Virus record (IMG/VR): IMGVR_UViG_3300031277_000005
Location: 1-45,871 of that record
DNA from: a virus
DNA length: 45,871 bases
Strand: one strand, 5' to 3'
Below the pieces are notes generated by a model. The model was not told where the DNA came from and did not search any database. It saw only the letters and a list, made by a program, of their open reading frames with translations. The position numbers and the translations under genes are program-made. Numbering within the stretch: the stretch's first letter is position 1; the number at the start of each line of letters is the position of its first letter. Of the stretch, positions 1 to 45,871 are shown piece after piece.

Positions 1-127
1 AATCATGATGAATCCAGAGACAAACCGGTTTGAACCCGTTGAAGAAGTGAAGGTAGAAAATCATCCTGTACAAACACAACACTTCATTCGGCAGGACGGA
101 ACACCGGTCCCACTGCAAAACCCTGTA
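1..127. repeat. Terminal direct repeat, left copy (contig circularity)
   Basis: Bases 1-127 are identical to 45745-45871. Exactly 127 bases is a usual maximum k-mer of short-read assemblers, so this is most simply the overlap of a circular assembly path rather than a physical terminal repeat. The unique genome is then 45,744 bp. The gene at 5-289 takes its ribosome-binding site from the right end of the window. Confidence 0.93.
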
Positions 128-334: not shown

Positions 335-362
335 ACAAGCTCAGATCCGAGGAGGCTTGGGC
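335..362 (+). repeat. 28-bp direct repeat, copy A (gene-tail remnant)
   Basis: Identical to 45678-45705. In the frame ending with TGA 376-378 it reads DKLRSEEAWAEDFE, resembling the C-terminus of the protein at 45193-45672 (DYLDKLRSQEEW). No start codon opens this frame, so it looks like the leftover 3' end of a lost gene. Its stop overlaps the ATG of the next gene (ATGA at 375-378). Confidence 0.8.
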
Positions 363-374
363 GGAGGATTTCGA

Positions 375-896
375 ATGAGAAGAAGAAATAGCAAGAAACA
401 GAACGTTGAACTTGATTCCATAGCAATGGAGCATGGTGGAATCTTGAGGGCCAGCGACGTTGTTGAGTTCGCGAGAAATCCAGATACAGCTCTTCATAAG
501 AAGTTCGAGTGGGATGATACGAAGGCGGCGGAACGGTATCGTATCAACCAGGCGTCGCACATTATAAAATGTCACGTCACCTATATCCCTGCTGAGCAAT
601 CGGAGCCGGTGAAAGTGAGGGGGTATATATCGCTCCCGAGCATGCGAGGAAACCAGGAGTATCGCAATACAGAGGACATACTAGATAACGACGATTGGAG
701 ATGTGAGATGCTGGACATGGCGCTCAAGGAGCTGAAGTCGTTCAGGCAGAAATACGAGGTGCTCTCTGAGCTGGCGTCGACATGGGAAAAGGTGGATCAA
801 ATCAAGGATGACATCACGAAGAAAAAACACGAGTTGAGGATACGGATGGACGAGAGGGCTGCGGCGAGAACCGTATCTACTCCGGCGAGCCCATGA
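375..896 (+). CDS. Conserved phage hypothetical protein (early operon)
   Basis: This 173-aa protein has the segment HGGILRASDVVEFARNP followed by a KFEWDD-KAAERYR block, a pattern I associate with a conserved phage family of unknown function often near recombination genes. The C-terminal third (about residues 105-160) is charged and probably coiled-coil. ATG 375 is chosen over an upstream TTG in the same frame because it overlaps the preceding remnant stop (ATGA). The TGA stop at 894-896 in turn overlaps an ATG at 893, the start of the low-complexity frame over the pentamer array. A role in DNA metabolism is inference from position only. Confidence 0.8.
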   Translation: MRRRNSKKQNVELDSIAMEHGGILRASDVVEFARNPDTALHKKFEWDDTKAAERYRINQASHIIKCHVTYIPAEQSEPVKVRGYISLPSMRGNQEYRNTEDILDNDDWRCEMLDMALKELKSFRQKYEVLSELASTWEKVDQIKDDITKKKHELRIRMDERAAARTVSTPASP

Positions 897-1201
897 TCTT
901 CTGCCCCTTGGCTGTGCGCGGCAGGCTAGTCACGGCGTGTCCGGGCACGGTCCGGCAAGGCGGGGCTTGGCAGGCAAGGCTTGGCAGGCTTGGCGGGGCT
1001 CGGCGCGGCACGGCCGGGCTAGGAACGGCAGGCGTGGCAAGGAGAGGCGTGGCACTGAATGGTAAGGCGAGGTTCGGCTTGGCAGGTTTGGCTCGGCTCG
1101 GCTTGGCCGGGCTAGGAACGGCAAGGCACGGCAGGCAAGGCACGGATAAAAACTTAATACTTTTACGCTTAGAAACACGCACACAGAAAGGCAGACAATG
1201 A
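893..1201 (+). CDS. Possible low-complexity protein translated from the pentamer array
   Basis: An open frame of 102 codons runs exactly between two genes: its ATG overlaps the upstream stop (ATGA at 893-896) and its TGA (1199-1201) overlaps the next ATG (1198). The product would be almost only G, A, R and L with period-five character (for example GLAGLARLGLAGLG). The array lacks stops in several frames, so openness alone proves nothing, but the coupling at both ends is what a translated operon member shows. It may equally be an untranslated spacer whose repeats tolerate ribosomes. No family is recognised. Confidence 0.35.
   Translation: MIFCPLAVRGRLVTACPGTVRQGGAWQARLGRLGGARRGTAGLGTAGVARRGVALNGKARFGLAGLARLGLAGLGTARHGRQGTDKNLILLRLETRTQKGRQ
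940..1145 (+). repeat. Five-base-period GGCNN array, copy 1
   Basis: About 200 bases made of degenerate 5-mers of type GGCNN (ggcaa, ggctt, ggcag, ggcgg, ggctc). A longer unit, ggccgggctaggaacggca, occurs twice (around 1011 and 1105). G-rich on this strand. It sits immediately before the RAMP-like pair. Similar, weaker arrays lie at 2584-2754 and, in the opposite orientation, 28140-28310. Confidence 0.85.
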
Positions 1202-1851
1202 AGAAAGAAGCAGAAAAAAAACAGAATGAGTCCAAGAAAAAAGCAAAAGACGGAGAGATACTGATCAAGGAACTGAAGCTCGATGTGGCGCAGTTCACCA
1301 TTGAGGGGACGGCGCCCTATGTCCAGCTTCAGTTCAGCGAGAAGGCTCGAAACGAGATGGCCAAGAACATGACCACAAAGAAAGGAGACAAGGAGAAGAG
1401 ATCTCCGAGGGATTTCGACGAAGACTACAAAAACGCTTTTCACGTATCCAGTGAAGGGTGGCATGGAATCCCTGCCACCGCATTCAAGAACGCGATGGTC
1501 GACGCATGCAGAAACACAGGTCAGGCGATGACCCAAATAAAGATGGTCATGTTCATACACGCCGATGGCGTAGACAGGATAGATGGAACGCCTTTGATAA
1601 AGATCAATGGTAAGCCACACAAGGTTGTTCATCCTGTGTCAAACTCAGGAAAGGTCGCGGATCTCAGAGTCAGGGCAATGTGGGATACCTGGTCGGCTGT
1701 CGTGAAGATAGAATTCGATTCGAGCGCTATATCACTGACGAGTGTCGGCAATCTCCTGTCCAGGGCCGGAATGCTGATCGGCATCGGTGAGGGTCGCCCA
1801 TTCAGTAAGAAAAGCTGCGGAATGGGATGGGGAACATTCAGGATACTGTAA
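1198..1851 (+). CDS. RAMP-like (Cas7-like?) phage protein A
   Basis: A 217-aa protein with a Lys/Glu-rich N-terminus (1-20), then a beta-strand/helix core including GWHGIPATAFKNAMVDACR (about 87-105), and a C-terminal glycine-rich loop GIGEGRP...GMGWGTF (195-214). This order, an 'IP-x-x-x-h-K-x-A-h' helix followed by a late GxG...GxGxF loop, resembles RAMP/Cas7-type folds. I know the family only as conserved phage hypotheticals, so the fold is inference. SD GAAAGG lies 8 bases before ATG 1198. It is followed after 12 bases by a second protein with the same ending, and preceded by a pentamer array. A nucleic-acid-binding role in the recombination/early operon is plausible. Confidence 0.7.
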   Translation: MKKEAEKKQNESKKKAKDGEILIKELKLDVAQFTIEGTAPYVQLQFSEKARNEMAKNMTTKKGDKEKRSPRDFDEDYKNAFHVSSEGWHGIPATAFKNAMVDACRNTGQAMTQIKMVMFIHADGVDRIDGTPLIKINGKPHKVVHPVSNSGKVADLRVRAMWDTWSAVVKIEFDSSAISLTSVGNLLSRAGMLIGIGEGRPFSKKSCGMGWGTFRIL

Positions 1852-1863
1852 AAGGAGAAAGCG

Positions 1864-2583
1864 ATGACTGAACCAAAGAAGAAACAAGCAAAACCAGAGA
1901 AGCCCAGCGGAGAGCTGACATCGAATATCATGCACGTCGAGGCAACGTTCATTCACCCGGTGCTCGGCACGGCGCCAGGAAACCCGGATCTCTACGCGGA
2001 GTTCATCGGCCAGAAGAGCGATGTCGACGCGAAGCGCATCAAGGACGAGCTTGCATCCCTGCCGGCCGAGGAGCTGGAGGCAAAAGGCAAGACCGTGTTC
2101 CATCGGGACGATGACGGAAACCCCTGCCTCCTGGACTATCAGATCAAGGGGATGATCAAGCAGGCCGTCGTGGCCTTCTGCGAGTTCGGAGATGTCAAAC
2201 TCGGTACCGGGAAGAACAAGATCTCGAAGTGGACCGCGAAGCGAATCGTCGACCTGTTCGTATTTGTCTATCCACGGGAGATCCCCTTGATCATGCCCGA
2301 CGAAGCCGAGCTCGACGAATGCGTTCGCCCGCTCAGGGGCGTCACCCAAAAGGGAGAACGGGTCAGCCTGGCGTGCTCTGAGAGGGCACCGAAGGGAACC
2401 AAGATCAGATTTTCCGTCGAGTGGCTCCGACCCGAGCTCGGAACCGTCGTGAGAGATGCTCTCAACTATGGTGAAAAAATCGGTATCGGTCAATGGCGTG
2501 GCAGTGGGATGGGTCGATTTACATGGGCTGACATCAGCGACGGCGAGGTGCGGCCGCGAGACGAGCCGACTGGTGACGCGTAG
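1864..2583 (+). CDS. RAMP-like (Cas7-like?) phage protein B
   Basis: A 239-aa partner of the preceding gene. After a Lys-rich leader it has an early strand (MHVEATFIHPVLG, 23-35), the segment CLLDYQIKGMIKQAV (88-102), a conserved-looking block CVRPLRGVTQKGERVSLACS (153-172), and the C-terminal loop GIGQWRGSGMGRF (207-219), close to the glycine-rich loop of RAMP proteins. I associate the 'RPLRxxTxxGERV' block with a widespread phage family of unknown function. SD AAGGAG lies at 1853-1858. The frame ends at TAG 2581-2583; the same frame then stays open to TAA 2752-2754, and its tail (SDGEVRPR) is echoed there (SDGEAWPR). Confidence 0.75.
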   Translation: MTEPKKKQAKPEKPSGELTSNIMHVEATFIHPVLGTAPGNPDLYAEFIGQKSDVDAKRIKDELASLPAEELEAKGKTVFHRDDDGNPCLLDYQIKGMIKQAVVAFCEFGDVKLGTGKNKISKWTAKRIVDLFVFVYPREIPLIMPDEAELDECVRPLRGVTQKGERVSLACSERAPKGTKIRFSVEWLRPELGTVVRDALNYGEKIGIGQWRGSGMGRFTWADISDGEVRPRDEPTGDA

Positions 2584-2754
2584 GCTATGCGCTGTAACGC
2601 AGATCACTGCGGCGGCAAAGTCAAGCCGAGCGTCGCGATGGCTAAGCCCGGCTTAGCTGGGTATCGCGTTGCGCCGGCAAGGCGAGCCGTTGATTTGCTT
2701 AGCGACGGCGAGGCGTGGCCGCGCGCCGCCGGGCACAGTCCGGAGACGGAGTAA
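2584..2754 (+). repeat. Degenerate pentamer array, copy 2, with duplicated gene tail
   Basis: GC-rich spacer with weaker five-base periodicity (taagc, ccggc, ttagc, gttgc, caagg). Bases 2701-2723 repeat 2536-2558 with two mismatches (agcgacggcgagg...ggccgcg), i.e. the 3' tail of the preceding gene appears twice, once on each side of the array. It ends 22 bases before the convergent late operon. No clear hairpin-plus-T terminator is visible at the convergence. Confidence 0.6.
2587..2754 (+). CDS. Possible 55-aa protein over array 2
   Basis: ATG 2587 follows the TAG of the RAMP-like gene after three bases, in the same frame, and reads to TAA 2752-2754. The start MRCNADHCGG contains two cysteines and a histidine; the end SDGEAWPRAAGHSPETE echoes the tail of the upstream protein. 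It could be a reinitiated small protein, an amber-readthrough extension, or untranslated scar sequence. No family is recognised. Confidence 0.3.
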   Translation: MRCNADHCGGKVKPSVAMAKPGLAGYRVAPARRAVDLLSDGEAWPRAAGHSPETE

Positions 2755-2775
2755 AACATCTTTTAACCCACCCTC

Positions 2776-28024: not shown

Positions 28025-28139
28025 ATTGGTACGTCGATCGTGTAAAGGCAAGACGAGGATCATCCCGAGCCCCGCCCACAACACCCTAAGATTTTAGGTT
28101 AGTGTCCGGAAAATTTCAATCCAAAAAGGTGCGTGTTTT

Positions 28140-28310
28140 ACTTCCCGCCGGAACTGTGCCGCGCTTTGCCTCGCGATGCCACGCCATTGCTATGCAGTAA
28201 CCTGCGCTACCTCGCCGTTGCGATGCGGTGCTTCACTGCTCATTGCCTTGCCGTTGCTTCTCAGCTCCGTGCTCAGCGCCGCCGTGCTCAGCACAGCCGC
28301 CGCCGTGATC
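28140..28310 (-). repeat. Five-base-period array, copy 3 (minus orientation)
   Basis: On the plus strand 5-mers of TGCNN/CGCNN type (tgccg, cgctt, tgcct, cgcga, tgcca, cgcca); on the minus strand these read as GGCA/GCAA units (acggc, aaggc, aatgg, cgtgg, catcg). Same style as 940-1145 but more degenerate. It overlaps the end of a 66-aa frame at 28233 and lies between the lysis candidate and the terminase genes; 28025-28140 holds no visible gene. Confidence 0.7.
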
Positions 28311-28433
28311 CACCAGGCATCGCCGCCGCAGGCTCTCCATCGCAACCTCCTCGAGCAGGAGACAAAGCCGCTCAAGCTTCAAATTTACAATGTAACTTTC
28401 AAGCTTGGCGCAGTGATCAAGCAATTCATCCAC
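28233..28433 (-). CDS. Small protein next to holin candidate
   Basis: 66 aa from GTG 28431-28433, overlapping the stop of the 53-aa membrane gene. The first half is a leucine-rich amphipathic helix (DHCAKLESYIVNLKLERLCL), while the last 30 residues (HGGGCAEHGGAEHGAEKQRQ) come from the pentamer array. The coupling to the holin candidate and the helical heptads resemble a small coiled-coil lysis partner, but no enzyme or spanin signature is visible. The C-terminal part may be array-derived extension. Confidence 0.5.
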   Translation of the reverse strand: MDELLDHCAKLESYIVNLKLERLCLLLEEVAMESLRRRCLVDHGGGCAEHGGAEHGAEKQRQGNEQ

Positions 28434-32673: not shown

Positions 32674-33619
32674 CCTTCTGGTCCTGCTTGAGAGCCTCTA
32701 TAGTCCGCCTTCGCATTGCCTCGGCCCTGGTCTCAGGCCTGGGCTCGAAATCGGCTGGAATTGTCTCCCAGTAGCCCTCACGCAGCCATCGGGACAGCGC
32801 CACGATGTACGAGCCGTTGTCCCTCTGCCATTTTGGTGATTTTTTCCAGTAGCCGAGGTACTCCTCAGCCTTTACGACCGTCATGCCGGCCGCCTTAGCC
32901 GTCTGCCAGCTCTTCCAGTCCTGGGCCTTCCCCCCGAGGCGGTGACTGGGATACTTGGATCTAAACGTCTCAAATTCAACAGAGTAAGACAATCGCGCGC
33001 GAGCGCGTTGTTTCTTCTTTGGGGCTACATGAGTATTACTGTATCTACTTTCTTCTGAAAACGTAAGAGTGGGAGCGGGAGCGGGAGTGGGAGCGGGAGT
33101 GGGAGTGGGAGTGGGAGCGGGAGTGCGAACTTTTGCATGACGCTTGCATCCGCTTGCATCCGTTTGCATTGCAAAAGATTCCGTTTGCATGCAAGTGTCT
33201 GCCGTTTGCATTTCATATGCACTATCTTTTCCCCACCGTTTTTCGGCTGCTTCCCTGCGTAAGTCGCTAATAGTCTTTCCCTTTTTTCTTCTGTCGGCTT
33301 CTCGCTTGGCTCTCTTCTGGACATACTCGGGGGCATGGTCAAACAAATCGTGCACCGAATAGATCCCGTCGTCGTCGATATCGATAAACCCGGAACGCGC
33401 CAGGCCGCCGCATTTCTCGAGGGCTGCGGTGAGCTCTCCGGCGGCGCCATCCCACTCGCACGCGAGCTCGACATCAGTGGCATCGCCGATACAGGGATCT
33501 CCGGACTCATAAGCCGAACACCATAGGAGTTCCAAATATCCAATTACTGCTGGCTTAGGTGCTCCAAGAATAAGGCATAGGCGACGGAACTTGTGGTGGT
33601 TTAGCAGGGTGGGTCGCAA
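32651..33619 (-). CDS. Replication initiator (phage O / replisome-organiser like)
   Basis: 322 aa from TTG 33617-33619 (SD GAGAGG six bases upstream; a TTG eight codons earlier lacks an SD). The N-terminus is a winged-helix-type domain (NHHKFRRLCLILGAPKPAVI; GFIDIDDDGIYSVHDLFDHA), then a basic linker, a Pro-Thr-Ala repeat (about 168-185), and a C-terminal domain WKSWQTAKAAG...YIVALSRWLREGYWE resembling the helicase-loading ends of phage replisome organisers. Like lambda O, the region between the domains contains phased repeats that could be its own binding sites (origin). Its ribosome-binding site is complementary to an upstream sequence. Confidence 0.8.
   Translation of the reverse strand: MRPTLLNHHKFRRLCLILGAPKPAVIGYLELLWCSAYESGDPCIGDATDVELACEWDGAAGELTAALEKCGGLARSGFIDIDDDGIYSVHDLFDHAPEYVQKRAKREADRRKKGKTISDLRREAAEKRWGKDSAYEMQTADTCMQTESFAMQTDASGCKRHAKVRTPAPTPTPTPAPTPAPAPTLTFSEESRYSNTHVAPKKKQRARARLSYSVEFETFRSKYPSHRLGGKAQDWKSWQTAKAAGMTVVKAEEYLGYWKKSPKWQRDNGSYIVALSRWLREGYWETIPADFEPRPETRAEAMRRRTIEALKQDQKDEDRGLF
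33068..33124 (-). repeat. Hexanucleotide repeat (GGGAGY) coding a Pro-Thr/Ala linker
   Basis: About nine copies of GGGAG(C/T) on the plus strand, giving TPAPTPTP-type linker on the minus strand, between the DNA-binding and C-terminal domains of the initiator. Such tracts vary in copy number by slippage. It lies between the iterons and an AT-richer stretch (33008-33066). Confidence 0.85.
33133..33211. repeat. Phased TTGCAT iterons; candidate replication origin
   Basis: TTGCAT (fuller unit CG(C/T)TTGCAT) begins at 33133, 33144, 33154, 33164, 33185 and 33206: spacings of 11, 10, 10, 21 and 21 bases, i.e. all on one face of the helix. They lie inside the initiator gene, between its DNA-binding and C-terminal parts. 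An AT-rich stretch follows at 33008-33066 after the hexamer repeat. This is the arrangement of the lambda origin within gene O. Two of the units are extended palindromes (TTTGCATTGCAAA; TTTGCATGCAA). Confidence 0.68.
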
Positions 33620-45744: not shown

Positions 45745-45871
45745 AATCATGATGAATCCAGAGACAAACCGGTTTGAACCCGTTGAAGAAGTGAAGGTAG
45801 AAAATCATCCTGTACAAACACAACACTTCATTCGGCAGGACGGAACACCGGTCCCACTGCAAAACCCTGTA
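45745..45871. repeat. Terminal direct repeat, right copy
   Basis: Identical to 1-127; carries a partial second copy of the 94-aa gene's first codons. See left copy; an assembly overlap of a circular genome. Confidence 0.93.

What the first reader, a model, noticed from the sequence alone, without database searches (positions are those of the whole stretch)
893..2754. Two adjacent RAMP-like proteins bracketed by five-base-period arrays
Proteins A (1198-1851) and B (1864-2583) both end in a glycine-rich loop (GIGEGRP...GMGWGTF; GIGQWRGSGMGRF) after a core with an 'IP-x-x-x-hK-x-A' or 'hxhIKGhhKxA' helix, the order seen in RAMP/Cas7 folds. Pentamer arrays lie immediately before and after the pair. 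A phage RAMP pair without any CRISPR array or Cas nuclease, in a recombination operon next to repeat DNA that could be transcribed, may be an independent RNA/ssDNA-coating system. The fold and the link to the arrays are inference.
Basis: partly seen in the sequence, partly recalled or inferred. Interest (0 to 1): 0.78.

Follow-up and report, generated by a model that had tools for sequence, protein, structure and literature searches.

The report
Phage carrying two RNA-guided repeat systems
This phage carries a gene and repeat array of a recently described RNA-guided virus-against-virus system called VIPR and, directly beside it, a second and different member of the same protein superfamily with its own repeat arrays written in a different grammar, an arrangement that could show how such guide codes diverge.

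Summary
A (1198-1851) and B (1864-2583) both model as RAMP/Cas7 folds and pentamer arrays flank the pair. But A and B are not one conserved pair: they are two RAMP-plus-array units side by side. A is a Vipr (profile match to PDB 36pp 'SUSP1 Vipr', E 4e-37) and array 1 (910-1148, GGYNN) its guide-RNA array, as in the 2026 VIPR preprint (PMC13142463). C (357-896) is a frequent neighbour and candidate accessory gene. Scanning IMG/VR for the DNA repeat alone gave 120 loci; 86 hold an A homologue within 736 bp. B is a different RAMP family (at least 181 phage relatives) with its own arrays in 78 of 82 viral loci and another grammar: [N]G[C/A]NN units with +1 six-mer breaks, where C-bearing A loci have -1 four-mer breaks. 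In the window each array follows the grammar of its neighbour; the only other genome found with both (L197) repeats the split. A third, unreported array (28345-28151, minus strand) has B grammar and the same covarying hairpin tail as array 2. No target was found. VIPR itself is published; whether B is among its seven types could not be checked.

The parts
357..896 (+). C: phrog_15946 family, candidate Vipr accessory (vap-like) gene; no match to the SUSP1 gene next to vipr
   Evidence: C homologue near A in 9 of the first 10 A loci and in 38 loci overall; no match to the SUSP1 neighbour gene
910..1148 (+). Array 1: 49 GGYNN units with six 4-base breaks (GGCA); candidate guide-RNA (vrRNA) array of A
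   Evidence: hypervariable NN on a fixed frame in relatives
1198..1851 (+). A: Vipr protein (single-domain RAMP)
   Evidence: profile match to PDB 36pp_D E 4.4e-37; model pLDDT 89.8 with Csm3/Cas7 as top fold hits
1864..2583 (+). B: second RAMP of a separate family with its own pentamer arrays
2583..2746 (+). Array 2: [N]GYNN units with 6-base breaks (B grammar); array-like sequence reaches back to 2542 inside the end of B
2732..2758 (+). 3' tail of array 2: small hairpin followed by GUAAAACA
28151..28345 (-). Array 3, in trans: B grammar, intergenic, near the terminase gene
28134..28160 (-). 3' tail of array 3: same hairpin with a compensated stem, followed by GUAAAACA

Best explanation
Two RNA-guided RAMP systems lie side by side in one operon. 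Unit 1 (C, array 1, A) is a VIPR system: array 1 is transcribed, Vipr subunits bind one GGYNN pentamer each, and the variable NN pairs read double-stranded DNA of a competing phage or prophage with one skipped base per unit, repressing transcription. Unit 2 (B, arrays 2 and 3) works in the same way with its own guides: B coats [N]G[C/A]NN pentamers and uses the hairpin-GUAAAACA tail as its handle, and one of its arrays is encoded in trans on the other strand. Shown here: the folds, the families, the array-protein linkage, the two grammars and the shared tail. Shown by others for relatives of A: guide binding, the skip rule and repression. Inferred: transcription in this phage, guide use by B, and target identity.
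For: A profile to Vipr 36pp, E 4.4e-37. Protein-free scan: 86 of 120 array loci carry A within 736 bp, 84 of them in the same orientation. A proteins 94-98% identical have wholly different NN letters on one frame. Only skip length 1 gives an excess of matches for A-family guides, 17 against 9.4 +- 3.5. B: arrays beside B in 78 of 82 viral loci, always with more +1 than -1 breaks; C-bearing A loci 32 to 0 the other way. The window and L197 each show both grammars, each beside its own protein. Tails of array 2, array 3 and L135 share a hairpin with compensatory changes. The parser finds one array upstream and three downstream of vipr in SUSP1, as published.
Against: No natural target found for any window guide. 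The skip-1 excess is small and comes from the whole A set, not from the window. For B no reading rule emerged and B has no match to Vipr by profile. Array 2 is short and degenerate. No expression data.
Confidence: 0.82

Rival explanations
1. A and B form one mixed complex (as different RAMPs do in CRISPR effectors) on a single RNA; the two arrays are parts of one guide set.
For: A and B genes are 12 bp apart on one strand and have the same order of fold elements.
Against: A occurs without B and B without A in nearly all loci, each with its own arrays; the arrays keep different grammars even where both proteins are present (window, L197); in L197 the two genes are over 3 kb apart.
Confidence: 0.08
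2. Unit 2 is a decaying or vestigial system; only A and array 1 are functional.
For: Array 2 is short, degenerate and overlaps the end of B; B has a C-terminal extension that the other aligned relatives mostly lack.
Against: B keeps the family's G-loop and an intact frame; arrays 2 and 3 keep the same tail through compensatory changes; two arrays persist.
Confidence: 0.15
3. The arrays are not guides but DNA features: coding low-complexity ORFs (893-1201 is an open frame overlapping C and A), recombination hot spots, or binding sites that regulate the operon.
For: ORF 893-1201 is open with ATGA overlaps at both ends; the arrays lie in a recombination operon.
Against: Pentamers with -1 and +1 breaks do not keep a reading frame; the array lies before A, between A and C, or after C in different loci; NN letters turn over completely while A stays 94-98% identical; relatives' arrays are shown to be RNAs bound by Vipr.
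Confidence: 0.04

Closest known systems
VIPR (Viral Interference Programmable Repeat), SUSP1 type II, PMC13142463; PDB 36pp
   Same: Vipr-family RAMP, pentamer arrays with hypervariable NN beside the gene, phage-borne, small accessory gene.
   Different: SUSP1 has discrete 12-16-unit arrays with uniform 5-base steps and long invariant tails and a different accessory gene; unit 1 here has one long array with 4-base breaks and C. A second RAMP with its own arrays is not mentioned in the main text.
CRISPR type VII Cas7 and type III Csm3/Csm4
   Same: Fold and G-loop; B hits type VII Cas7 at 1.7e-8 by fold and 1.7e-4 by profile.
   Different: No repeat-spacer array or cas genes seen; guide RNA is a pentamer array.
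UniProt A0A8S5R426, 'Cas system-associated RAMP superfamily protein' of Siphoviridae sp. ctcMb1
   Same: 44% identical to B, TM 0.70 and 0.85: a member of the same family.
   Different: Known only as an annotation; no array or function is attached to it in the search output.

Membership tests
VIPR (for A + array 1) | Vipr-family RAMP protein | tested here: met
   Profile E 4.4e-37 to the SUSP1 Vipr chain; reciprocal match of the A HMM to SUSP1 Vipr 5e-41
VIPR (for A + array 1) | Tandem GGY/NN repeat array beside the gene with hypervariable NN | tested here: met
VIPR (for A + array 1) | Array transcribed and bound by the protein | not testable with these tools
   No expression data; shown for SUSP1 and P. 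fulva in PMC13142463
VIPR (for A + array 1) | One-base-skip recognition of DNA targets | tested here: inconclusive
   Skip-1 excess over the whole A set, but no target for the window guides
VIPR (for A + array 1) | vap accessory gene | tested here: inconclusive
   C is a recurrent neighbour but does not match the SUSP1 neighbour gene; the paper's vap list could not be read
VIPR (for B + arrays 2 and 3) | Vipr-family RAMP protein | tested here: inconclusive
   RAMP fold; no significant profile match to Vipr 36pp; profile-profile with A 79%, E 1.5e-5
VIPR (for B + arrays 2 and 3) | GGY/NN array or a related consensus | tested here: met
   Pentamer arrays with [N]G[C/A]NN and +1 breaks in 78 of 82 viral B loci; counts only as a 'related consensus'
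CRISPR-Cas class 1 | Repeat-spacer array and cas genes | tested here: not met
   No Rfam hit in the window; A, B and C match no Cas family significantly; no repeat-spacer array among the tandem repeats. Other window ORFs were only partly scanned.

The most novel reading that the evidence does not exclude
B founds a RAMP-guided lineage outside the published VIPR types. It is closer in its G-loop to CRISPR Cas7, with one invariant G per pentamer and +1-spaced cassettes of about 5-7 units. The freed first base may be read too, so that three bases per unit give near-contiguous target reading, a step between VIPR and CRISPR; and guides can be supplied in trans from a distant array.
Probability: 0.25. 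Interest if true: 0.88.

Novelty: new variant of a known kind. Interest (0 to 1): 0.62.

Why it matters
VIPR is proposed as the ancestor of CRISPR RAMP effectors, but how one guide code could change into another is unknown. A genome with two RAMP proteins and two array grammars side by side is a natural test of how protein and guide code co-evolve and stay separate, and B, whose profile matches CRISPR Cas7 rather than Vipr, is a candidate intermediate. The B family is common in phages (many hosts are gut Clostridia) and A homologues sit in culturable Mycobacterium and Gordonia phages, so this can be tested.

Tried and rejected
(1) A-B as a conserved operon pair: rejected, 2 genomes only. (2) Arrays as a coding low-complexity ORF: rejected. 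(3) Natural targets of array 1: exact patterns of three window guides and one guide of Mycobacterium phage Saal in IMG/VR, no hits; mismatch-tolerant scan of fetched loci, nothing convincing. The Saal scan was meant as a positive control and also failed, so these scans are not informative negatives. (4) Three-base contiguous reading for B: stop-codon depletion and neighbour correlations are present but confounded by ordinary TpA avoidance and physical adjacency; p1-p4, the informative non-adjacent pair, gives r = 0.32 with genome dinucleotides; no excess of contiguous matches. Left open. (5) A per-window majority consensus for B arrays failed because +1 breaks shift the phase; solved by the chain parser. 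(6) The single-sequence B search in IMG/VR found nothing; the alignment search found 181. (7) The single-sequence A search of the PDB found nothing; the profile found 36pp.

Full report
Observation. Array 1 (910-1148) parses as 49 units GGYNN with six 4-base breaks (GGCA|GG); array 2 (2583-2746, with array-like sequence reaching back to 2542 inside the end of B) parses as [N]GYNN with five 6-base breaks in the full chain and no 4-base break. Neither score is reached in 500 dinucleotide-preserving shuffles. The record has a 127-bp exact terminal repeat, which suggests a circular genome; the C-A-B genes then follow a recombination operon (RecE-like, Erf-like).

What A is. A matches only an unnamed PHROG (4652). 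Homologues were found in IMG/VR, in Mycobacterium and Gordonia phages and in a cyanophage. Each of the A loci first fetched had a pentamer array next to A. Array DNA is 106 bp per kb within 1.5 kb of A and 1.1 elsewhere in the same loci; for B 149 and 0.84. Because the A loci of the second set were chosen by their arrays, the density for A is partly built in; the B loci were chosen by protein alone. An alignment of 60 A proteins hits PDB 36pp_D, 'SUSP1 Vipr protein', at 4.4e-37. The AlphaFold model (pLDDT 89.8) has Csm3/Cas7 chains as top Foldseek hits, with modest TM-scores of about 0.35-0.5.

Prior art. PMC13142463 (bioRxiv 2026) describes VIPR: a phage RAMP, tandem YNNGG guide RNAs, gapped recognition of double-stranded DNA with one skipped base per unit, repression of competing phages, seven types, accessory vap genes, and 'staggered arrays with overlapping vrRNAs' in some systems. 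Unit 1 of the window is such a system. As a yardstick I parsed the SUSP1 locus: the parser finds one array upstream and three downstream of the genes, as the paper reports, all with uniform 5-base steps. C does not match the SUSP1 gene next to vipr, so unit 1 is not a close copy of the SUSP1 arrangement.

Guides. Three loci with A proteins 94-98% identical (L003, L126, L072) have entirely different NN letters on the same GGC frame, with the same GGCA breaks and nearly the same array end. Over all A-family arrays, only skip length 1 gives more 8-unit matches in the fetched phage DNA than unit-shuffled guides (17 against 9.4 +- 3.5; other skips 1-2 against about 4). The shuffled baseline is itself higher at skip 1, as expected if NN letters resemble codon positions 1 and 2. 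This agrees with the published rule but is weak on its own. No target of the window guides was found.

What B is. B has no family match by itself. Its alignment found at least 181 relatives in IMG/VR (80 kept) and 69 loci in GTDB genomes, mostly Clostridia MAGs, also Coriobacteria-related and Saccharibacteria bins and one Lokiarchaeota bin (binning of phage contigs into MAGs may be wrong). The strongest 5-base periodicity of the locus lies beside B in most cases. The B profile hits type VII Cas7 (1.7e-4) and Csm4 (0.003), not Vipr; profile-profile comparison with A gives 79%, E 1.5e-5. The model (pLDDT 82.7) has nearly the same order of elements as A and matches type VII Cas7 at 1.7e-8. One UniProt relative is already annotated as a RAMP protein.

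Two grammars. B arrays: position 2 is G in 94%, position 3 is mostly C or A, position 1 is free; each cassette of mostly 4-6 pentamers ends in a 6-mer NGC-RA-N and the next begins with GG. In 78 of 82 viral B loci +1 steps outnumber -1 steps and the reverse never occurs; with the GTDB loci 122 of 143 have such arrays. C-bearing A loci show the opposite: 32 with more -1, none with more +1; A loci without C are mixed. In the window, array 1 follows the A rule and array 2 the B rule. L197, the only other genome found with both proteins, shows the same split. This is the main argument that the pair is two systems and not one.

A third array. The window-wide scan found one more array on the minus strand at 28345-28151, between late genes near the terminase. 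It has B grammar, and its end GGCACAGUUCCGGCGGGAAGUAAAACA aligns with the end of array 2 (GGCACAGUCCGGAGACGGAGUAAAACA). Both, and the array end in L135, fold to a 4-bp hairpin followed by GUAAAACA, with different stem letters that keep pairing (UCCG/CGGA, UUCC/GGAA, ACCC/GGGU). Three sequences are few, but none of 2000 random 50-base pieces of the window aligns as well. It suggests a shared 3' handle and guides supplied in trans. Most other B loci do not show this tail.

Limits. There are no expression data; the preprint's type table could not be read, so B may be one of its seven types; B's reading rule is unknown; C's role is inferred from neighbourhood only; several counts use profiles iterated on the same loci.

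Noticed in passing
window 1-127 and 45745-45871: Exact 127-bp terminal direct repeat: the record is probably a complete, circularly closed genome.
   Followed up: partly
window 893-1201: A 102-aa ORF runs through array 1 and overlaps C and A by ATGA at both ends; it may couple translation rather than make a protein.
   Followed up: partly
L008, L009, L010, L007: A homologues with pentamer arrays in Mycobacterium phage Saal (gp51), Gordonia phages UmaThurman (gp39) and Ecliptus (gp19) and Cyanophage Cy-LDV1, all annotated as hypothetical: the actinophage ones are culturable models.
   Followed up: partly
A loci without C (25 of 60): Among A loci without C, 25 have more +1 than -1 breaks, 18 the reverse and 16 none, so the A family itself holds more than one array grammar.
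   Followed up: no
L113 4277-5008: A ParB-like gene lies directly beside the A homologue, possibly another accessory type; seen in about 5 loci.
   Followed up: no
window 33067-33169: Another tandem repeat: GAGTGG-type 6/18-base units (about 10 copies) followed by 10-base units.
   Followed up: no
window array 1, cassettes 4 and 6: The stretch GGCCGGGCTAGGAACGGCA (units CG, TA, AC) occurs in two cassettes: a duplication, or two guides for related sites.
   Followed up: no
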